NCBI RefSeq assembly: GCF_005222485.1
Contig: NZ_CP029078.1
Span: forward strand, 4,739,501 to 4,803,500
From: Streptomyces griseoviridis
GTDB lineage: Bacteria > Actinomycetota > Actinomycetes > Streptomycetales > Streptomycetaceae
Reading direction: 5' to 3'
Length of the DNA: 64,000 nucleotides
Below are positions 20,137-28,283 of the stretch, piece by piece. The translations under genes and the position numbers were made by a program. A model generated the notes under the pieces. It saw only the letters and a list, made by a program, of their open reading frames with translations, had not been told where the DNA came from and searched no databases. Within the stretch, counting starts at the first letter, position 1; every line of letters begins with the position of its first letter.

Positions 20137-20820
20137 ATGACCCGGGTGCTCGTGGTGGAGGACGACCCGCAACTCGTACGGGCCCTCGTGATCAACCTCC
20201 AGGCCCGCCAGTACGGTGTCGACTCGGCGCCCGACGGCGCCACCGCGCTCCGCCTCGCCGCCGACCGGCGGCCCGACGTCGTGCTCCTCGACCTCGGACT
20301 GCCCGACATGGACGGCGTCCGCGTCATCCGGGGGCTGCGCGGCTGGTCCCGGATGCCGATCCTGGTCCTCTCGGCCCGGCAGACGTCCGAGGAGAAGGTG
20401 GCCGCGCTCGACGCGGGCGCCGACGATTTCGTCACCAAGCCGTTCAGCATGAACGAACTCCTCGCCCGGCTGCGGGCCGCCGTCCGCCGCACCGAACAGC
20501 AGCCGGTGCCGCCCGCGACGACCCGGGTCGGGACGGCGGACTTCACCATCGACCTGCTGGCGAAGAAGCTGGTCCGCGACGGCCACGACGTACGCCTGAC
20601 ACCGACCGAGTGGCAGCTCCTGGAGATCCTCGTCACCCACCCGGGCAAGCTGGTCACCCAGCGGCAACTGCTCCAGGAGGTGTGGGGCGTCTCCCAGAGC
20701 GGCAAGACGAACTATCTGCGGGTGTACATGGCACAACTGCGCAGAAAACTGGAGAGGGACCCGTCGAGCCCGCGCTACCTGATCACGGAGGCAGGCATGG
20801 GCTACCGCTTCGAACCGTGA
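20137..20820 (+). CDS. kdpE: KdpE-like OmpR-class response regulator
   Basis: A 227-residue regulator: a receiver domain (1-120, acidic pocket E8/D9, phospho-acceptor D52, switch Ser in VLSARQ, Lys in VTKPF) and a winged-helix DNA-binding domain (about 130-225, ending RYLITEAGMGYRF). Position and sequence fit KdpE, which activates kdp under K+ limitation. The cognate kinase KdpD, normally next to it, is missing: only 100 bp separate kdpC from this gene and no kinase follows. The regulator must be phosphorylated by a kinase encoded elsewhere, or by cross-talk. Confidence 0.88.
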   Translation: MTRVLVVEDDPQLVRALVINLQARQYGVDSAPDGATALRLAADRRPDVVLLDLGLPDMDGVRVIRGLRGWSRMPILVLSARQTSEEKVAALDAGADDFVTKPFSMNELLARLRAAVRRTEQQPVPPATTRVGTADFTIDLLAKKLVRDGHDVRLTPTEWQLLEILVTHPGKLVTQRQLLQEVWGVSQSGKTNYLRVYMAQLRRKLERDPSSPRYLITEAGMGYRFEP

Positions 20821-20860
20821 CCCTGCCGGACCGCGGGTGCCGTACGGCGTGTGCCCTGCG

Positions 20861-20990
20861 GCCTGTACCGGCCTGTACCGGCCTGTACCGGCCTGTACCG
20901 GCCTGTACCGGCCTGTACCGGCCTGTACCGGCCTGTACCGGCCTGTACCGGCCTGTACCGGCCTGTACCGGCCTGTACCGGCCTGTACAG
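20861..20990. repeat. 10-bp tandem array, 12 perfect copies
   Basis: The unit GCCTGTACCG repeats 12 times without a mismatch (20861-20980). One variant copy (GCCTGTACAG, 20981-20990) and a decayed one follow. The unit length is one helical turn, and each copy contains GTAC and forms CCGG/GGCC at the joins. It lies 40 bp after kdpE and 58 bp before the convergent universal-stress gene end. Long frames across it are artefacts of the repeat. Confidence 0.95.
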
Positions 20991-21047
20991 GCCTGCCCGC
21001 TGTGCCGGGGGCGCGGGGCTGTGCCGCCCGACCGCCGGGTCCCCGCC

Positions 21048-21611
21048 TCACCGGCCGTCGCTCAACTGCCGTATCTCCGAGCGGAGTCGGCGTCCGCCGC
21101 CCAGGCCGCGGATCGCGGTCATCTCGGCGGCCAGCGGTGACGGCGGGACCGCGAGGACCGGGCAGGTGGCGTGGGCCAGGCAGTAGCGGCTCACGGACGG
21201 CCCGCACATCCGGCGCAGCCGTCCCCGCCGCCCGGTGCCGATCACCAGCAAGTCGCTCTCGTCCGAGGCGAGTTCGACCAGCGCCCGGCCGGCCGAGCCA
21301 CGGGAGGTGATCGCCGACAGCGGCACCCCCGGGCCCTCGGCGGCCGGGAACGCGTCCGCGAGGACGCCGAGCAGCCGCCCCTCGGCCAGGTCCCGCCACT
21401 CCCGCAGCAGCGACTCGGGCGCGGCCGACCGGCTCATCGGACCGTCGCCGCCCGGCGGCTCCCAGGCCAGCACCGCCCACAACTCCGCACGCCTGCACCG
21501 GGCCTCCTCGGCGGCGCGGGCCAGCGCGGTGAGCCCGCCCAGCGAGCCGCTCACCCCGACCACCACCCGGCGGGTCCCGGTGCCTTCCCCTCGCGCCCTG
21601 CCCATGCCCAT
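21048..21611 (-). CDS. Universal stress protein, single UspA domain
   Basis: A 187-residue cytosolic protein. The UspA fold begins at RVVVGVSGSLGG, and the ATP-binding signature is seen late: GTGRRGRLRRMCGPSVSRY, then CPVLAV (about residues 130-160). The C-terminal 30 residues are an Arg-rich extension. Most Streptomyces Usp proteins have two domains; this has one. It lies beside kdpE, and Usp domains are part of full KdpD kinases, which makes the pairing notable. ATG 21609-21611 follows GGGGAG at 4 bases. Confidence 0.88.
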   Translation of the reverse strand: MGMGRARGEGTGTRRVVVGVSGSLGGLTALARAAEEARCRRAELWAVLAWEPPGGDGPMSRSAAPESLLREWRDLAEGRLLGVLADAFPAAEGPGVPLSAITSRGSAGRALVELASDESDLLVIGTGRRGRLRRMCGPSVSRYCLAHATCPVLAVPPSPLAAEMTAIRGLGGGRRLRSEIRQLSDGR

Positions 21612-21971
21612 GCCGCTCCCCACGTCACGGTTGCCGGGCCCGGCACACCTCCGACGGGCCCTCGCCCCATCAGACTCCCGTACGACGCCCCCGACCACCC
21701 CGCGCGCAGCTTTTTGCCGCCCTTCTGACAGCGCGGGACCGCGCGGCCACGCGATCCATCAACGTCCCGTCAGGACGGGGTGCATATGCCGTCGACGCGC
21801 TTAGGATCGTTCCCGAGCCCCGGCCGCCTCCCCGCGTACCGGGGCTCTGGCCATGGAAGGAACCCGGTCGGCGGGGCGCGGCCCCGCGCCGGTTTCCACC
21901 GGGAGCGACGCCCGCTCCGACGACGCACCAGCCACCACCGGAGCGGGCGCTCGCACCGCGGGGGAGCCCGG
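21612..21971. promoter_or_regulatory. 360-bp upstream region of the stress-protein gene
   Basis: No gene is supported. A short dyad CCCGTC-AG-GACGGG lies near 21766-21779, about 155 bp upstream of the stress-protein start, with a less GC-rich stretch (GCATATGCCG) beside it. This is the likely promoter area for the leftward gene. Confidence 0.4.
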
Positions 21972-22160
21972 CTACCGCCGCAACGCCCGGTAGCGCCTCA
22001 GGAGTTCGGTGATGCGGGCCGGGTCGGCGGCGCCGTTCAGCTCGGTGAGGAGATCGTCCGGGCACAGCTCGTAGAGGTCGCCCCAGGTCCGTCGCCCCCG
22101 GTTGTCCCAGATGCGGTAGCCGCCCGGCACCCCGCGCGCCACGTAGCGTCGTCTGCTCAC
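21972..22160 (-). CDS. Small conserved protein, 62 residues
   Basis: A basic N-terminus (SRRRYVARGVPGGYRIWDNR) is followed by a helical acidic/basic segment (LYELCPDDLLTELNG) and an Arg-rich end. The RIWDNRxxRxWG pattern recurs in short Streptomyces proteins of unknown role. The GTG start at 22160 has no strong ribosome site. It is divergent from thyA. Confidence 0.5.
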   Translation of the reverse strand: MSRRRYVARGVPGGYRIWDNRGRRTWGDLYELCPDDLLTELNGAADPARITELLRRYRALRR

Positions 22161-22214
22161 CGGCCGAACCCTACGCGGCTGCCGACGGCTGAGCCACGGG
22201 TTTCGACCGGAACC

Positions 22215-22237
22215 CCGCGAGAATTCCGCGAGAATTC
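22215..22237. repeat. 11-bp tandem duplication with GAATTC-like core
   Basis: CGCGAGAATTC is followed at once by a second copy with the same 11-bp period. It lies in the AT-richer space between the 62-residue gene and thyA, where a promoter is expected. The area 22200-22460 has clearly lower GC than its surroundings. Confidence 0.6.
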
Positions 22238-22438
22238 CGCGCGAAAGCGAAAACCCCGGAAAGGGGGGGCGAATTCCGTGCGGATTCTCCTGTGAATTAA
22301 CGGCAGGGCGGCGAGTCGAATGGGTCGGTCGGCGGTGGGTCGGTGGGGCAGCAGGTCAGAGTGGGTGTGAGGAAGCTGACTGCTAGCATGGCGGGCAGCC
22401 CTGCCGGGAGCGGCGGCGGGCCAGGAAAGGAAAACCTC

Positions 22439-23335
22439 GTGGAATATGCTGCGTTCGCGGACCGGACGCCGGATTCGCAATACCGTACGATCCTGGAGAA
22501 CATCCTCGATCACGGAGAACCGGTGCCCACCCGACAGGGCCCGGACGCGTTGACGCTTATGCAGCAGACCATGAGCTTCGACCTCGCGAACGGATTCCCG
22601 GTCATCACCGACCGGAGCATGGCCCGATTCTGGCGCAAGCCGATCGGGGAACTCTGCGCTTTCATCAACGGCGCCACCACCCTCGACGAATTCGCCGAGT
22701 TCGGCTGCGACTGGTGGGGCCCCTGGGCGAGCGAGAGCAAGACGTCCAAGCGCGGGCTGCCGCCCGGCGACATCGGGCCGGGCTCGTACGGCGGGGCGTT
22801 CCACGACTTCCCCACGGCGGAGGGCGGCGGCTTCGACCAGTTCAGGCATCTGGTCGAGCAGATCTCCGAACTCCCCGCCGACCGCACGCACTTCGTCAGC
22901 CCGTGGATCCCGCAGTACCAGGTCCGCGGCGCGGGGAAGACCCCGAGGACGACCATCGCGCCCTGCCACGGCTGGGTGCACGTCCGGGTCATCGGCGGCC
23001 GTCTGCACCTGCACATGTTCCAGCGCTCCGGTGACGTCCCGGTCGGCGTCCCGTCGAACATGGTCCAGTACGCGGCGCTGCTGCTGATGCTGGAGCACCT
23101 CACCGGCTTCCCCGCCGCCCGCTACTACCACACGATCTCGGACGCCCACATCTACGCCGACCAGGTCGGCGGCGTGAAGCTGCTGCTCGACCGCGAGCCG
23201 CGCCGGCTGCCCACCGTCACCCTCAACGACGCCGGGCGCGCGGTCACCGACATCCACGACTTCCGCGGCGAGCACTTCGACATCGCCGACTACGAGCCCC
23301 ACCCGGGCATCGGCTCCATCCCGGTGTCGACATGA
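22439..23335 (+). CDS. thyA: Thymidylate synthase, ThyA family (divergent actinobacterial type)
   Basis: A 298-residue ThyA-fold enzyme expected to methylate dUMP to dTMP with methylene-tetrahydrofolate. Key residues seen: catalytic Cys in TIAPCHGW (about 180), phosphate Arg in FQRSGD (about 203), Asp of the same motif, Asn in PSNMVQYA that reads the uracil ring, and the His/Tyr pair in SDAHIYAD. The second Arg of the usual RR phosphate pair is Thr (DRTHFVSPW). An insert SKTSKRGLPPG follows the WW segment. The Asn argues for dUMP over dCMP. GTG 22439 follows AGGAAAGG. Its stop overlaps the folA ATG. Streptomyces generally rely on ThyX, so this would be an additional route. Confidence 0.85.
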   Translation: MEYAAFADRTPDSQYRTILENILDHGEPVPTRQGPDALTLMQQTMSFDLANGFPVITDRSMARFWRKPIGELCAFINGATTLDEFAEFGCDWWGPWASESKTSKRGLPPGDIGPGSYGGAFHDFPTAEGGGFDQFRHLVEQISELPADRTHFVSPWIPQYQVRGAGKTPRTTIAPCHGWVHVRVIGGRLHLHMFQRSGDVPVGVPSNMVQYAALLLMLEHLTGFPAARYYHTISDAHIYADQVGGVKLLLDREPRRLPTVTLNDAGRAVTDIHDFRGEHFDIADYEPHPGIGSIPVST

Positions 23336-23874
23336 TCAGGTCCCTGATCGTCGCGGCGGCCGAGGACGACGTCATCGGCGTGGACGGCGACCTGCCCTGG
23401 TACATCCCGGGCGACCTGCGGTACTTCAAGGAGGTCACGCAGGGCCACGCGGTGGTCCTCGGCCGCCGTACCCACGAGTCGATCGTCGCCCGTCTGGGCC
23501 GCCCGCTGCCGCGCCGCGCCAACGTCGTCGTCAGCCGGTCCCCGGCGCCCGAGACGGCACCGGAGGCGGCACCGGCGGGCGAGGTGCACTGGCGCACGTC
23601 GGTCGAGGCCGCGTTGGAGACCGCCGTCGCGCTGGAGCGGGCGGCCGGGCTCGGCGAGGTGTTCGTGATCGGCGGGGCGTCCGTCTACCGCCAGGCCCTC
23701 GCCTCCGTCGACCGGATCTACCTGACCCGGGTGCACACCGTCGTCGCGGGCGACACCCGGATGCCCGCGGGCTGGCTCGACGGCTTCGCCCCGACGTCCC
23801 GCACGGACGTCCCGGCGCAGGGCGAGACCCCCGCCCACTCGTTCCTGGTCCTGGAGCGGGAGCGGCCGGCGTGA
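23332..23874 (+). CDS. folA: Dihydrofolate reductase
   Basis: A 180-residue NADPH-dependent reductase regenerating tetrahydrofolate from dihydrofolate. It has GVDGDLPWYIPGDLRYFK (Asp/Trp of the substrate site), VVLGRRTHESI, NVVVSR and VFVIGGASVYRQAL. ATGA overlap with thyA and GTGA overlap with the HIT gene show one co-translated unit. Coupling with a ThyA makes sense, because ThyA (not ThyX) releases dihydrofolate. Confidence 0.93.
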   Translation: MIRSLIVAAAEDDVIGVDGDLPWYIPGDLRYFKEVTQGHAVVLGRRTHESIVARLGRPLPRRANVVVSRSPAPETAPEAAPAGEVHWRTSVEAALETAVALERAAGLGEVFVIGGASVYRQALASVDRIYLTRVHTVVAGDTRMPAGWLDGFAPTSRTDVPAQGETPAHSFLVLERERPA

Positions 23875-24338
23875 GCCTCTACTACTTCGGCAACTGCCGT
23901 ACGGAGGAGCAGCGCGCGGAGATGGAGCGGCTCGACCGCGCCGGGGTCTGCCTGTTCTGCCCTGACGTCATCAGGGCCCACGAGAAGCAGCAGATCGTGG
24001 CGGAGACCGGCCACTGGATCGTCACGCCCAACGAATTCCCTTACGCCGGGGCCCGGTTGCATCTGCTGCTCATCCCGAAGGAGCACGTCACCGACCTGGT
24101 CGAGCTGTCGGTCCCGGCCCGCGCCGACCTCTTCGAGGCGCTGCGGTGGGTGAAGGACACGTACGGCCTCGACCACTACGGCCTCGGCGCCCGCAACGGC
24201 GACAGCCGCTTCACGGGCGGCACGATCCGCCATCTGCACCTGCATGTGCTGGTCGGTGAGGGTGACGAACAGCCGGGCGGCGCGGGGGACTTCACCCCGG
24301 TCAGGATGAAGTTCAGCTCCCGCCCGAAGGACCGCTGA
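23871..24338 (+). CDS. HIT-family nucleotide hydrolase/transferase
   Basis: A 155-residue protein with the histidine triad HLHLHV (about residue 125) and the upstream LLLIPKEHVTDL. An N-terminal zinc-knuckle-like CLFC lies at about residue 30. HIT proteins cleave nucleotidyl-X bonds (ApnA, AMP-lysine, nucleotidylated sugars). The start GTG overlaps the folA stop, so it is the third gene of the operon. Its 3' end overlaps the convergent deaminase gene by 26 bp. Confidence 0.88.
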   Translation: MSLYYFGNCRTEEQRAEMERLDRAGVCLFCPDVIRAHEKQQIVAETGHWIVTPNEFPYAGARLHLLLIPKEHVTDLVELSVPARADLFEALRWVKDTYGLDHYGLGARNGDSRFTGGTIRHLHLHVLVGEGDEQPGGAGDFTPVRMKFSSRPKDR

Positions 24339-25320
24339 GGGCGCTGCCGGCTCCGTCGGTGCCGTCGGTGCCGTCGGTTCCGTCGGGGCCGTCGGGGCCA
24401 TTGGTGCCGTCGGTTCCGTCGGCGCTTCCGGGTCCTCCGCGTTCCCTTCCGGGCCCTCCGGGTTCCGGGGCGGGCTCCGGGTCCATGTCCACCCACACCA
24501 GCTCGACCCCGCCTGCCCGCAGGACGCCCTCCCCGTCGAGCATCGAGTACGGTCCGGCGAAGTAGCAGCGCAGGAAGCCGGATTCGACGACCAGCCGGGC
24601 GCAGGCCGGGCACGGGAACGTACTGACGAACAGCTCGGCGCCCGCCAACTCCAGCCCCTGGCGGGCCGCTCGGGCGATCAGGGACGCCTCGGCGTGGATG
24701 GCGGTGGACAGGTCGGGGCGCAGCCCGCGGCTGAAGTCGTTGCGGGGATCGCCGTCGACGTAGGGCGCGTACTCGGTCGGGTGGTGGTGGTTGAACGCGG
24801 TCGCCAGCACCCGTCCGTCGCGCGCGGCGACCGCGCCGACCTGCCGCCACCAGTCCGAGCTGCGCCGCGCCTCGCCCTGCGCGCGCGCCATGAGCCGGCG
24901 GTCGAGGGCCGTGCGGGAGATCCGGCCGTCGAAGCGGGCGGGCCGGGTGGCCCGGCTCCACTCGCGGTCCCACCGCAGGAACGTCGGTTCGAAGCGCACC
25001 TCGGCCCGGCCGGGGGAGCCGGGCAGCTCGACCAGCCGGTGCATGATCTCCTCGTCGGGCAGCACGACGAGGTCGGCGTCGAGGGCGGCGGGCAGCTCGC
25101 CTGGCTCCACGACCCGCACCGGCGTGCCGGGCACGACGAGACGGGCGTGCGCGGCGGCCCGCTCGGGGCTCAGGGCGCGGATCTCCTTGGCGAGCTTGGG
25201 GAAGACGGTGTGGAAGCCCGACCCGAGGACGAGGATCTCGTCGGAGTCGGCGTGCCGGGTCAGCAGGGCCTCGTACCCGGAGTGCAGGACGGGCAGGTAG
25301 AGCAGGGTGCGCTTGGTCAC
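24313..25320 (-). CDS. dCMP-deaminase-like protein with an N-terminal domain of unknown function
   Basis: A 335-residue protein in three parts. Residues 1 to about 140 (VTKRTLLYLPVLHSGYEALL and on) form an alpha/beta domain I do not recognise. Residues of about 150-295 are a zinc cytidine/dCMP deaminase domain: AIHAEASLI supplies the zinc His and catalytic Glu, and STFPCPACARLV the two zinc cysteines. The tail (about 295-335) is a Gly/Asp/Thr repeat. A dCMP-deaminating role (dCMP to dUMP) would feed the ThyA next door. GTG 25318-25320 overlaps the stop of the nucleotidyltransferase gene. Confidence 0.82.
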   Translation of the reverse strand: MTKRTLLYLPVLHSGYEALLTRHADSDEILVLGSGFHTVFPKLAKEIRALSPERAAAHARLVVPGTPVRVVEPGELPAALDADLVVLPDEEIMHRLVELPGSPGRAEVRFEPTFLRWDREWSRATRPARFDGRISRTALDRRLMARAQGEARRSSDWWRQVGAVAARDGRVLATAFNHHHPTEYAPYVDGDPRNDFSRGLRPDLSTAIHAEASLIARAARQGLELAGAELFVSTFPCPACARLVVESGFLRCYFAGPYSMLDGEGVLRAGGVELVWVDMDPEPAPEPGGPGRERGGPGSADGTDGTNGPDGPDGTDGTDGTDGAGSALSGPSGGS

Positions 25321-25910
25321 GGAGTGCCCTGGTCGTCGTTGAGCCCGAGCTGGATGCGGCGCAGCCGGGCCGAGGTGCTGACGGTCGCCATCCGGTCCAG
25401 GACCTCGACCCGGGTGCAGTACTTCGACTCCAGCTCGGCGATCTCCTCCGGGCTGTACGTGTCGGCGGTCGCGACCAGCACATCCGGGCGGACGGCCTCG
25501 ATCAGGCTCCACCGGGGGTGATCAGGCTGCTTGAGGGTGACGAGTCCGACGCCCCGCTGGTGGGTGACCATCCGCAGCCGTTCCATCTCGGGCACGGCCG
25601 GACGGTTGGGGCCCTTGCGCTGCCTGATCTTCTCGTCGCTGTCGAGGCCGACGATCAGGAAGTCGCCGAACTTGCGGGCCGCCTCCAGATACATCGAGTG
25701 GCCCTCGTGGATGATGTCGAACGACCCGCTCGTCAGCACGACCTGCATGCCGAGGACCCGCAGCGCCTCCACGATCTCGGTGATGCGCCGGTAATCCGCG
25801 ATGAACCGCAAGTCGAAGTTCGACTCGTCAGCGAAGAGCCCCTTGGCGTACATGGACCCTTCGTGGATCAAGTCATTGGCCCACCGGGCTTTTCCGAGCT
25901 TGCTGGTCAT
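25317..25910 (-). CDS. RfaE/TagD-type nucleotidyltransferase
   Basis: A 197-residue protein. An N-terminal helical extension (1-55) precedes a Rossmann nucleotidyltransferase domain with SGSFDIIHEGHS (HxGH) at about residues 70-82 and the second site VLDRMATVSTS replacing the usual ISSTxI. Relatives transfer AMP or CMP to sugar or glycerol phosphates. The acceptor is unknown; no LPS heptose pathway or teichoic acid genes are adjacent. ATG 25908-25910 follows GAGGGA; an upstream ATG at 26039 would add a Pro/Arg-rich leader. It is coupled (GTGA) to the deaminase gene, so the two proteins likely act together. Confidence 0.82.
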   Translation of the reverse strand: MTSKLGKARWANDLIHEGSMYAKGLFADESNFDLRFIADYRRITEIVEALRVLGMQVVLTSGSFDIIHEGHSMYLEAARKFGDFLIVGLDSDEKIRQRKGPNRPAVPEMERLRMVTHQRGVGLVTLKQPDHPRWSLIEAVRPDVLVATADTYSPEEIAELESKYCTRVEVLDRMATVSTSARLRRIQLGLNDDQGTP

Positions 25911-26115
25911 TTCCCTCTTGGCCTCGCTCCGGGTGTGGTAACGCCTCGATGGTAGCGGGGCCGCGGTGCCGCCGGGGGTGACGGCGGGGCGGCGGGGCGG
26001 GCGGCGGCGCCCGGTGACCCTGTGCGAGGAGGTCACCACTCCCGCCGCCCCGCCCCCGCCCGCCCCGCCCCCGCCCGCCCCGCCTCCCTCCGGGAGAGGG
26101 CCGGGCCGCGATCCG
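25911..26115. promoter_or_regulatory. Promoter of the nucleotidyltransferase-deaminase pair, with a C-rich repeat
   Basis: A 205-bp space. The left half contains the expected leftward promoter. At about 26043-26092 the sequence is a run of CCCGCCCCCGCC-type repeats; the other strand is G-rich and could form a quadruplex. It lies downstream of the ABC ATPase gene. Confidence 0.4.
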
Positions 26116-26865
26116 TCACCGGCCTCCGAGCGACGCGAGGCGCGAGGCGAGGCCCGGAGCCGTCGGGGTCTCCACCGACTCGACGACCTTGCCGCCCGCC
26201 ATCACCAGCGCCCGGTGCGCGCGGGAGGCCGCCGCCGGGTCGTGGGTGACCATCACGACGGTCTGGCCGAGGTCGTCGACGAGGGTGCGCAGCAGGTCGA
26301 GGACCTGGTGGGCGCTGGACGGATCGAGCGCGCCGGTCGGCTCGTCGGCGAAGACCACCACCGGCCGTCCCGCCAACGCCCGCACCACGGCGACCCGTTG
26401 CTGTTCGGCGTCGGTGAGTTCGGCGGGCCTCGCGGCCAACCGGCCGGTGAGGCCGACGCGTTCGACGAGCGTGGCGAGCCACTCCCGGTCCGGGTCGCGG
26501 CCGGCCAGCCGCAGCGGCAGCGTGATGTTCTCCTCGGCGGAGAGGGACGGGATCAGCTCGTAGGTGCGGAACACGAACCCCACGCGCTCCCGCCGCAGTT
26601 CGCCGCGCCGGGACTCGCTCAGACCGGACATCTCCTGCCCGTCCACCCGCACACTGCCCGACGTCGGCGCGTCGAGGCCCGCCGCGCAGTGCATGAGGGT
26701 GCTGGTGCCCGACCCGGGCGGCCCGGTCACGGCCACGAACGTGCCGTGCTCCACGGTCAGCGACACATCGTCGAGGGCCCGGACACCGCCCGCGTAGACC
26801 CGGCCGACACCGGTCAGCGTGACGGCGGGCGCGCGGTGGCCGCGCCCGAGGACGGCCGTGCTCAT
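26116..26865 (-). CDS. ABC-type ATPase with degenerate nucleotide site
   Basis: A 249-residue protein with the overall pattern of LolD/MacB-class exporters. Three hallmark sites are altered. The P-loop reads GPPGSGTST, with Thr where the essential Lys should be. The Q-loop reads FVFRTYEL, with Arg for Gln. The signature LSGGQ is LTDAEQQ. Walker B (VVVFADEPTGALD) and the switch His (VMVTHDPA) are kept. It may bind but hardly hydrolyse ATP. ATG 26863-26865 overlaps the stop of the small upstream membrane gene. No FtsX-type permease is adjacent. Confidence 0.88.
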   Translation of the reverse strand: MSTAVLGRGHRAPAVTLTGVGRVYAGGVRALDDVSLTVEHGTFVAVTGPPGSGTSTLMHCAAGLDAPTSGSVRVDGQEMSGLSESRRGELRRERVGFVFRTYELIPSLSAEENITLPLRLAGRDPDREWLATLVERVGLTGRLAARPAELTDAEQQRVAVVRALAGRPVVVFADEPTGALDPSSAHQVLDLLRTLVDDLGQTVVMVTHDPAAASRAHRALVMAGGKVVESVETPTAPGLASRLASLGGR

Positions 26866-27104
26866 CGGCGTCCCCCGCGGGCGCGCAGGGCGCGGACGGC
26901 CAGCGCGGTCGCGCTCAGCGCCGTCACCGCGCCGCACGCCAGGTGGGTCCAGGTGCCGGCGCCGGTGGCCGAGGCGACCGCGTTGGCGAGCCCGCTGATC
27001 ACCAGCAGTGACCAGAGCAGGAAGGCCGCGAGGTCGGCGCGGCCGGACCGTTCGGCCGTTCCGGTGCGCCGGTGACTGTCGTCGTGAGGGACGGTGTTCG
27101 CCAT
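26862..27104 (-). CDS. 80-residue two-helix membrane protein
   Basis: A charged N-terminus (about 1-22) and two membrane helices (AAFLLWSLLVISGLANAV, then LACGAVTALSATALAV) with a basic C-terminus. ATG 27102-27104 follows GGAGG. ATGA overlap with the degenerate ATPase gene suggests a dedicated pair. The family is not recognised. Confidence 0.8.
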   Translation of the reverse strand: MANTVPHDDSHRRTGTAERSGRADLAAFLLWSLLVISGLANAVASATGAGTWTHLACGAVTALSATALAVRALRARGGRR

Positions 27105-27413
27105 GGGGGACCTCCTGCGGTGGCCGCTGGGTTCGTCGGACACTGACGCTACGGATCTCGGCCCCAGGTGGCCCATCCCGGCTGCTGCCGTTCCCCGGTA
27201 CGGCAGGCTGTACCGCCGCCAGGCCACGGGCGCGGGGTCCTTCCGGGCGGTGCGATCGGCCGGTCGGCCTGACCCGACACGGTCCAGTGACGTTTCTTCG
27301 GTGAACCGGTTGCGCCATTGAGGTGAGTAAAGCGCGCGTAGAGGGAGGGTCACGTGATCACCTAGACATTCTCTTGTTCCGGTAAAGGAACCCCCCTTCG
27401 GAGGTATCGCTCC
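27105..27413. promoter_or_regulatory. Divergent promoter region, 309 bp
   Basis: Between the small membrane gene and the lyase gene. Visible elements are a palindrome GTGATCAC at 27354-27361, a short dyad GTTCC-N6-GGAAC at 27376-27391, and the ribosome site CGGAGG about 10 bases before ATG 27414. No gene is supported. Confidence 0.4.
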
Positions 27414-28283
27414 ATGAACGCGACCCACGGCACGAAGCTGCGCGAACAGATCGCCGCGCCCGGCACGACGCCCCTCATCGGCGTCTACGACATGTACTCG
27501 GCGTCGATCGCCGCCCAGCACTACGACGGCATGTTCGTCTCCGGGTTCGGATTCGCGGCCTCGCACTACGGGCTGCCCGACATCGGGTTCATCGCCTGGC
27601 CCGACATGGTGGCCTTCGTCCAGCGGCTGCGCGGCGCCTTCCCGCACCACCACCTGCTGGTGGACATCGACGACGGCTACGTCGACCCGGAGGTCGCCTG
27701 CCACGTCGTCGAGGGCCTCGAACGGATCGGCGCCTCCGGAGTGATCCTGGAGGACCAGAAGCGGCCCCGCCGCTGCGGGCACGCCGACGGCAAGCAGGTG
27801 CTGCCCCTCGAGGAGTACCTGGAGAAGCTGGAGCAGGTCCTCGCGACCCGCCGCGACCTGGTGGTGGTGGCCCGCACCGACGCCACGGACGAGCGCGACA
27901 TCCTGCACCGGGCCGAGCGGCTGGCCGCCACCGACGCCGACGTCGTGCTCGTCGACGGGGTCCGCAGCGTGGAGTGGATCCGCCGCATCCGCGAGGTCGT
28001 CGGCGGCAAGCCGCTGCTGTTCAACCAGATCGCGGGCGGCAAGTCGCCCCGGCTCTCCCTGGGCGAGCTGTCCGACCTCGGCGTGGACGTGGCGATCTAC
28101 AGCACGCCCTGCCTGTTCGCCGCCCACGAGGCGATGGACTCCGCGCTCACCGGGCTGAAGGAGCGCGACGGCCGGCTGCCCGAGGTGGACGCGGCGAGCG
28201 GGGTCGGGGTGCAGGTCTCCACCCGGCTCCTTGAGCGGAACATCGCCCGCCAGCTGAGCCGGCCCGAGGGCGTGGGCGTGTGA
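27414..28283 (+). CDS. Isocitrate lyase/PEP mutase superfamily enzyme
   Basis: A 289-residue TIM-barrel enzyme. The superfamily site EDQKRPRRCGHADGK (about 118-132) is of the lyase type (RCGH) rather than the EDK-NS type of PEP mutase. VDIDDGYVDP supplies the Mg2+ Asp residues, and VVARTDA follows. Likely activity is carbon-carbon cleavage of a 2-methylisocitrate- or dimethylmalate-like acid; the substrate is unknown and no methylcitrate genes are nearby. Its stop overlaps the start of a small secreted-protein gene. Confidence 0.87.
   Translation: MNATHGTKLREQIAAPGTTPLIGVYDMYSASIAAQHYDGMFVSGFGFAASHYGLPDIGFIAWPDMVAFVQRLRGAFPHHHLLVDIDDGYVDPEVACHVVEGLERIGASGVILEDQKRPRRCGHADGKQVLPLEEYLEKLEQVLATRRDLVVVARTDATDERDILHRAERLAATDADVVLVDGVRSVEWIRRIREVVGGKPLLFNQIAGGKSPRLSLGELSDLGVDVAIYSTPCLFAAHEAMDSALTGLKERDGRLPEVDAASGVGVQVSTRLLERNIARQLSRPEGVGV

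What the first reader, a model, noticed from the sequence alone, without database searches (positions are those of the whole stretch)
22439..25910. Nucleotide island: ThyA, DHFR and HIT facing a fused deaminase and a nucleotidyltransferase
Five genes in 3.5 kb form two coupled units that meet tail to tail: thyA-folA-HIT (ATGA and GTGA overlaps) and nucleotidyltransferase-deaminase (GTGA overlap). Seen: intact catalytic residues in ThyA (Cys, Arg, Asn), DHFR, HIT and the deaminase zinc site. Known: ThyA makes dihydrofolate, DHFR recycles it, and dCMP deaminase supplies dUMP. Inference: a self-contained dCMP to dUMP to dTMP route, plus an unexplained pair, a nucleotidyltransferase that would join a nucleotide to an acceptor and a HIT enzyme that would split such a bond. 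The set could make or control a modified nucleotide or nucleoside, or be an emergency thymidylate supply beside ThyX.
Basis: partly seen in the sequence, partly recalled or inferred. Interest (0 to 1): 0.75.

Follow-up and report, generated by a model that had tools for sequence, protein, structure and literature searches.

The report
Mobile five-gene thymidylate-making cassette
A set of five genes that looks built to make the DNA building block thymidylate is shared between soil bacteria and tiny Patescibacteria, and in this Streptomyces relative it appears to have replaced the usual enzyme (ThyX), bringing along two partner enzymes whose job is not known.

Summary
In detail: genes at 22439-25910 encode ThyA, DHFR, HIT, a fused dCMP deaminase (DEAM) and a nucleotidyltransferase (NTase), in two coupled units meeting tail to tail. 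They are a conserved unit: 30 of 35 related loci, from Actinomycetota and three Patescibacteria, hold all five. NTase and DEAM are one protein in two Actinomadura loci, DHFR and HIT one in a Patescibacterium. Gene distances agree.

"Emergency supply beside ThyX" fails here: the genome has no ThyX match, and at the usual site beside dapA thyX is missing between matching flanks. ThyX occurs in 321 of 343 genus genomes; 21 of the 22 without it have a ThyA, two of them (this genome, G086) the island type; the exception is 79% complete. So island ThyA is the likely thymidylate synthase: the only other ThyA-like gene has Asp at the dUMP-Asn position. I read this as a ThyX-to-ThyA swap by cassette.

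Unexplained: why an HldC/cytidylyltransferase-like NTase and a HIT enzyme are tied to dTMP synthesis. I propose, as inference only, that they carry the pyrimidine nucleotide in masked form. Nine limited paper searches found no description of the set.

The parts
22439..23335 (+). island-type ThyA (thymidylate synthase), 298 aa
   Evidence: PF00303 205.9 bits; TIGR03284 153.2 bits over its cut-off 108.35; E71, W93, Y117, C176, R196, S197, D199, N207, H237, Y239 invariant in an alignment of 21 island ThyAs
23332..23874 (+). DHFR (FolA-type dihydrofolate reductase), 180 aa, ATGA overlap with ThyA
   Evidence: PF00186 136.3 bits; in one ORF with HIT in Patescibacteria locus L097
23871..24338 (+). 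HIT-family nucleotide hydrolase/transferase, 155 aa, GTGA overlap with DHFR
   Evidence: PF01230 34.9 bits; H121, H123, R108 and R145 invariant, H125 in at least 90%, in an alignment of 19
24313..25320 (-). DEAM: about 125-aa N-terminal domain of unassigned family + dCMP-deaminase domain, 335 aa; low-complexity C-terminal tail
25317..25910 (-). NTase: nucleotidyltransferase of the cytidylyltransferase/HldC kind, 197 aa, GTGA overlap with DEAM
   Evidence: PF01467 59.4 bits; TIGR02199 103.3 bits, under its cut-off 181.5; family profile hits human ECT and HldC-type chains in the PDB; in one ORF with DEAM in L080 and L083 (Pfam on L080)
24313..24338 (.). tail-to-tail overlap of the two units (HIT stop and DEAM stop)
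   Evidence: ORF coordinates

Best explanation
A horizontally shared thymidylate-supply cassette. DEAM makes dUMP from dCMP, ThyA methylates dUMP to dTMP giving dihydrofolate, and DHFR regenerates tetrahydrofolate. In this Streptomyces-like genome it has taken over from ThyX, whose gene is missing from its usual place beside dapA, so island ThyA is the likely thymidylate synthase. SHOWN by sequence: the five-gene unit, its spread over Actinomycetota and Patescibacteria, the gene fusions, no ThyX match with both flanks of the site present, conserved active-site residues. INFERRED: the enzyme activities, the takeover and the transfer. For the NTase and HIT pair the working mechanism (inference, about 1 in 5 in some form) is a masked-nucleotide relay: NTase transfers a (deoxy)cytidylyl group to a phosphorylated acceptor, DEAM (fused to NTase in two loci) deaminates it, and HIT (fused to DHFR in one locus) releases the monophosphate as dUMP for ThyA. 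The 0.8 below is for the cassette and takeover, not for this relay.
For: No ThyX match in the genome. The dapA site: flanks of a thyX-bearing relative match at 78% and 87% identity and 171 bp stand where 937 bp, including thyX, stand in the relative. In 343 genus genomes ThyX is in 321; 21 of the 22 without it have a ThyA match at E below 1e-20 and the exception is 79% complete (Fisher p about 3e-23 on lists I transcribed). G089 and G332 have both island ThyA and ThyX: a possible intermediate. All five genes in 30 of 35 loci. 16 of 35 island genomes have no ThyX match; island ThyA is the best PF00303 match in all 35, and in 13 of those 16 the only one. Pairwise distances of the five genes agree (Spearman 0.73-0.90, 0 of 500 permutations reaching the value for each of ten pairs). 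In Patescibacteria the set lies beside a serine hydroxymethyltransferase gene (L097, L099; PF00464) and a dUTPase (L099). TS residues invariant against the residue table of PMC6005164 (passage).
Against: The counterpart of E. coli Arg127' (dUMP phosphate) is Thr150, invariant in the family, and Lys48 is Arg59; a Vibrio TS with Gly at the Arg127' position is still active with weaker binding (passages of PMC6005164). 17 of 35 island genomes keep a strong ThyX, so there the cassette is extra and may have another role. Three of the 16 genomes without ThyX (G480, G496, G507) have a further, weaker PF00303 gene, and G000 itself has one, with Asp at the Asn position and no counterpart of Trp93. Kineosporia (L084, L086) has ThyA alone in the fetched DNA; L089 and L096 show no DHFR there. 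Thymidine salvage and other DHFR genes were not searched for in G000. Several genomes without ThyX are MAGs. Nothing shows what NTase and HIT do. The distance agreement partly reflects species kinship.
Confidence: 0.8

Rival explanations
1. A modified-nucleotide pathway: ThyA is a hydroxymethylase or methylates another pyrimidine nucleotide, NTase attaches the product to a carrier and HIT splits it.
For: NTase, DEAM and HIT are linked to ThyA even where no DHFR is found (L089, L096). Three loci (L077, L089, L100) also carry a second protein with PterinBD-DUF4346 and a weak ThyA match, with a HAD phosphatase and a Parb-CE protein (Pfam run on the L077 set). The family has PSN/PAN where PFN is usual. 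17 of 35 carriers also keep ThyX.
Against: Asn207, Trp93, Cys176, His237 and Tyr239 are invariant in 21 island ThyAs. In G000 no ThyX was found and the only other PF00303 gene has Asp at the Asn position. The Patescibacteria sets lie next to serine hydroxymethyltransferase and dUTPase genes and ribosomal protein L11.
Confidence: 0.1
2. An ordinary thyA-folA operon that happens to sit beside an unrelated NTase-deaminase pair.
For: Distant ThyA-DHFR pairs without the other genes are common in this family of genomes: 30 of 34 short loci with a ThyA of about 30% identity have a DHFR next to it; five still more distant ones (L014-L018, 22-26%) show none. Phage contigs carry ThyA, HIT and NTase-DEAM apart.
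Against: 30 of 35 loci keep all five, in convergent, divergent (L073, L080, L083, L100) or otherwise altered order (L099 DHFR moved), and across two phyla; chance linkage would not be expected to survive rearrangement and 38-49% divergence of ThyA.
Confidence: 0.05
3. An anti-phage or conflict system using nucleotide depletion.
For: DEAM has weak matches to anti-phage dCTP deaminase models (63.2 bits against a cut-off of 400; PADLOC dCTPase 63.6 bits, best stretch 56 residues). HIT has a 19-bit match to ThsC. Parts occur in phage contigs.
Against: Of the five proteins only these two match PADLOC at E 0.01, both weakly. Absence of ThyX in carriers suggests a housekeeping role at least there.
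Confidence: 0.04

Closest known systems
thyA-folA (dfrA) operon of actinobacteria, e.g. mycobacterial thyA-dfrA (PMC3352284, passages seen)
   Same: ThyA followed by DHFR, dTMP synthesis with folate recycling; both ThyA and ThyX can occur in one genome
   Different: Island ThyA is about 30% identical to the other full-length ThyAs found in the family's genomes and forms its own clade (SH-aLRT 100, quick tree); HIT, DEAM and NTase are added
dCMP deaminase (S. mutans 2hvw, cyanophage S-TIM5 4p9c/4p9e, phage T4 1vq2)
   Same: deaminase domain and zinc motif; best structural matches
   Different: extra conserved N-terminal domain of about 125 aa with no Pfam match at E 0.1 in 15 members (best 0.11) and no PDB sequence match better than E 0.014
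HldC / RfaE domain II and ethanolamine-phosphate cytidylyltransferase (ECT)
   Same: NTase family and HxGH motif; best PDB profile hits 3elb E 2.7e-29 and 5x9q E 8.8e-24
   Different: below the curated cut-offs for heptose-1-P adenylyltransferase and glycerol-3-P cytidylyltransferase; acceptor unknown
HIT family (HINT, GalT, Ap4A phosphorylase kinds)
   Same: HxHxH active-site motif
   Different: scores far below the cut-offs of the GalT and Ap4A models it touches; best PDB hit E 2e-5

Membership tests
Thymidylate synthase ThyA (PF00303 / TIGR03284) | curated profile cut-offs | tested here: met
   PF00303 205.9 bits (cut-off 24.3); TIGR03284 153.2 (cut-off 108.35). Seven other TS equivalog models match below their own cut-offs
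Thymidylate synthase ThyA (PF00303 / TIGR03284) | catalytic Cys, dUMP-selecting Asn, His/Tyr for ribose, Trp80 | tested here: met
   C176, N207, H237, Y239, W93 invariant in 21 sequences, placed by the alignment and compared with the table in PMC6005164 (passage, which prints the E. coli Asn as 178; I know it as 177)
Thymidylate synthase ThyA (PF00303 / TIGR03284) | both Arg126' and Arg127' for the dUMP phosphate | tested here: not met
   R149 kept, second position is Thr150, both invariant; the Vibrio TS of PMC6005164 departs at the same place and is active
Thymidylate synthase ThyA (PF00303 / TIGR03284) | dTMP-forming activity | not testable with these tools
   needs complementation or assay
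dCMP deaminase | zinc motif HAE...PCPxC and fold | tested here: met
dCMP deaminase | dCMP rather than CMP, cytidine or dCTP as substrate | not testable with these tools
   fold neighbours also include RibD, TadA and a dCMP/dCTP deaminase
Heptose-1-P adenylyltransferase (HldC/RfaE II) | TIGR02199 cut-off | tested here: not met
   103.3 bits against 181.5
HIT family | PF01230 cut-off and HxHxH | tested here: met
   34.9 bits against 21.5; H121 and H123 invariant, H125 in at least 90% of 19
Anti-phage dCTP deaminase / PADLOC systems | NF041025 cut-off | tested here: not met
   63.2 bits against 400; PADLOC dCTPase match, best stretch 56 of 630 positions
HxGH nucleotidyltransferase family for the DEAM N-terminal domain | profile similarity to NTase | tested here: inconclusive
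   hhalign puts PVLHxGY on the HxGH region, probability 14%, E 0.0019 for this one comparison

The most novel reading that the evidence does not exclude
A previously undescribed route to dUMP that never passes through free dUTP: NTase makes a (deoxy)cytidine diphosphate-X from dCTP and a phosphorylated acceptor, DEAM deaminates the masked nucleotide, HIT releases dUMP and returns the acceptor phosphate, and ThyA/DHFR finish dTMP. It is exchanged as a cassette between Patescibacteria and Actinomycetota and can displace ThyX.
Probability: 0.15. Interest if true: 0.87.

Novelty: new variant of a known kind. Interest (0 to 1): 0.62.

Why it matters
It looks like a completed swap of an essential enzyme family (ThyX to a distinct ThyA) by a portable cassette, with likely before, during and after states in present-day Streptomyces, and it links Patescibacteria and Actinomycetota by a shared essential pathway. 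It also ties two enzymes of unknown role to dTMP supply, which makes a possible missing step in pyrimidine metabolism directly testable.

Tried and rejected
Emergency supply beside ThyX: rejected for this genome. Modified-base ThyA: disfavoured by invariant TS residues. Defence system: only two weak PADLOC matches. NTase as heptose or glycerol-3-P enzyme: below the curated cut-offs. N-terminal domain of DEAM as a degenerate NTase: only weak support; Pfam and PDB profile searches of that domain found nothing convincing, and the VIA list barely tested it. The fold of the NTase-DEAM fusion had low global confidence (pTM 0.42), so I draw nothing from its domain arrangement. NTase over 296 phylum genomes: 39 have a match at E <= 1e-10, but every listed match other than G000's own scores under 90 bits, and I did not examine their linkage. 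No Rfam match in 20500-28000 and no tRNA in the window. Close copies were not found on plasmids (ThyA: 257 records, all under 60% identity) or in the phage collection (DEAM: 414 records, all under 60%, none covering 80%). The viral-contig scan with NTase gave 32 loci of 27-35% identity; it missed the NTase of L221, so these scans are not exhaustive. In the ThyA viral scan 204 stretches encoded relatives and 80 were kept; all but L141 are at most 34% identical. Nine paper searches listed nothing that describes the set; the library holds only open-licence papers and I saw only listings and passages, so absence from print is not shown.

Sampling limits: the 35 loci come from one scan anchored on peptide words of the window ThyA, so distant members and unlinked DEAM/NTase are under-sampled. 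A test of whether DEAM occurs without ThyA across the genus was not obtained. The gene caller is home-made; for L097, L099 and L101 a cruder one was used. In the tree, 17 of 34 canonical ThyA rows were dropped at even steps and 7 viral rows were chosen by hand; the search was quick, with long-branch warnings. In one search I transcribed the genome lists; the two genomes without ThyX that one search does not print were taken to be G451 and G454, because neither is in its printed list of matches. G350 has a ThyX match only below the family cut-off (E 9.7e-4) and was counted as positive.
Full report
WHAT IS THERE. The five ORFs are as described. They form two units with stop-start overlaps: thyA-DHFR-HIT on the plus strand and NTase-DEAM on the minus strand, whose ends overlap by 26 bp. 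The window is G000:C1:4739501-4803500 of an 8.96-Mb, single-contig genome. The nearest named relatives of its ThyA are from Streptomyces.

THE SET IS A UNIT. A genome scan with ThyA alone gave 35 loci. tblastn with all five proteins plus gene calling (recounted) shows all five in 30 of 35. L081 (contig end), L089 and L096 (no DHFR found) have four; the two Kineosporia loci have ThyA alone. The layout is mostly convergent as here. In L073, L080, L083 and L100 the NTase-DEAM unit stands divergently upstream, L096 is rearranged, and in L099 DHFR has moved. So linkage survives rearrangement. Hosts include Streptomyces, Actinokineospora, Planosporangium, Actinomadura, Klenkia, Phycicoccus, Trebonia, Conexibacter, and three Patescibacteria (L097, L099, L101; ThyA 62, 54 and 51% identical). 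NTase and DEAM are one ORF in the two Actinomadura loci (PF01467 + PF00383 in the 469-aa ORF of L080). DHFR and HIT are one 332-aa ORF in L097; Pfam sees only DHFR there, and the HIT part rests on 33% tblastn identity and the histidine motif. Pairwise distances of the five genes correlate (Spearman 0.73 to 0.90; for each of ten pairs 0 of 500 permutations reached the value); species kinship contributes to this.

IT HAS TAKEN OVER FROM ThyX. PF02511 has no match in G000. Over 150 family genomes ThyX is in 145; the five without are G000, G086 (island ThyA 84%) and three genomes of one other genus with a distant ThyA. Over 343 genus genomes (a sample overlapping the first) it is in 321; of the 22 without, 21 have a ThyA, two of the island type (G000, G086) and 19 canonical, and the last is 79% complete. 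Fourteen genomes have both kinds, among them G089 and G332 with the island type. The DNA around thyX of a ThyX-bearing relative matches G000 on both sides (87% on the dapA side, 78% on the other), with 171 bp where the relative has 937 bp including the 246-codon thyX. Gene names at this site are read from the sequence. Among the 35 named island genomes, 17 have a strong ThyX (161 bits or more), 2 (Kineosporia) only a 40-bit match and 16 none; some of the 16 are MAGs. Island ThyA is the best PF00303 match in all 35; four genomes have weaker extra matches, three of them among the 16. The one other PF00303 gene of G000 scores 63 bits; aligned here it keeps the Cys but has Asp at the dUMP-Asn position and no counterpart of Trp93 or Tyr239.

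WHAT ThyA DOES. Aligned to solved thymidylate synthases and 20 relatives, the residues for catalysis and dUMP selection (table of PMC6005164, passage) are invariant. Arg127' is replaced by Thr and Lys48 by Arg. Passages seen say that ThyA chemistry needs high DHFR activity and that most ThyX-dependent bacteria lack folA (PMC3352284) and that most bacteria without a recognisable DHFR use ThyX (PMC1971073). This fits a cassette that carries its own DHFR.

THE UNEXPLAINED PAIR. DEAM's C-terminal domain is closest to dCMP deaminases by fold. Its N-terminal 125 aa have conserved PVLHxGY and LRWD motifs and no assignment; similarity to NTase is weak. NTase is nearest to ECT and HldC. The two kinds of fusion, and virus contigs that carry NTase-DEAM (L221), ThyA (L141) or HIT (L257, with a terminase-like gene, and the same sample number as L141), suggest two functional halves: NTase+DEAM and ThyA+HIT(+DHFR). 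No PF00303 match was found in the whole L221 record, and no ThyA, DHFR, HIT or ThyX in the 36.6 kb of it that I held. From this I infer a masked-nucleotide relay from dCTP to dUMP. It predicts testable activities but has no direct support.

HISTORY. Island ThyAs are one clade (SH-aLRT 100) with the Patescibacteria rows and Conexibacter at its base, unresolved. In Patescibacteria the set stands by serine hydroxymethyltransferase (L097, L099), dUTPase (L099) and ribosomal protein L11 genes (L097, L099, L101). Transfer between the phyla is likely; its direction is not settled. A 2025 study mentions one thyA received by Patescibacteria (PMC12455944, passage); the passages seen do not mention this set.

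Noticed in passing
G000:C1:3240012-3240689 (L037:9931-10986): A second, distant ThyA-like gene (19% identical) with Cys kept but Asp at the dUMP-Asn position (a signature that I recall from cytidylate hydroxymethylases), followed by a duplicated nucleoside-diphosphate-kinase-like gene and a radical-SAM-like gene.
   Followed up: partly
L141:7739-8662; L257:2283-2699; L221:7477-8837: Virus contigs carrying island-type ThyA (63%), HIT (43%) and the NTase-DEAM pair (73%/60%) separately; L141 and L257 bear the same sample number.
   Followed up: partly
L077:3945-6882, L089:7553-11742, L100:11827-14835: A three-gene module near or inside the island: protein of about 520 aa with PterinBD-DUF4346 and a weak ThyA match, HAD phosphatase and Parb-CE protein (Pfam run on the L077 set only); in L089 it interrupts the island and no DHFR was found.
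   Followed up: partly
L068, L070, L071, L072, L078 flanks of the island: Five of the seven named Streptomyces islands have a 250-aa protein with C-terminal HTH upstream and a dCTP-deaminase-like protein downstream; the window, L067 and L069 lack both.
   Followed up: partly
ThyX rows (e.g. G125, G030, G060): In some genomes of the family ThyX matches come in two pieces breaking near profile position 78-81 within ORFs of about 420-720 aa, as an intein would give.
   Followed up: no
window 20837-21000: Short tandem repeat between a KdpE-like regulator gene and a small minus-strand gene (repeated TGLYRPVPAC in translation).
   Followed up: no
window 24316-24470: DEAM of the window has a low-complexity DGTDG-rich C-terminal tail; most of the 20 aligned relatives have a much shorter one.
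   Followed up: no
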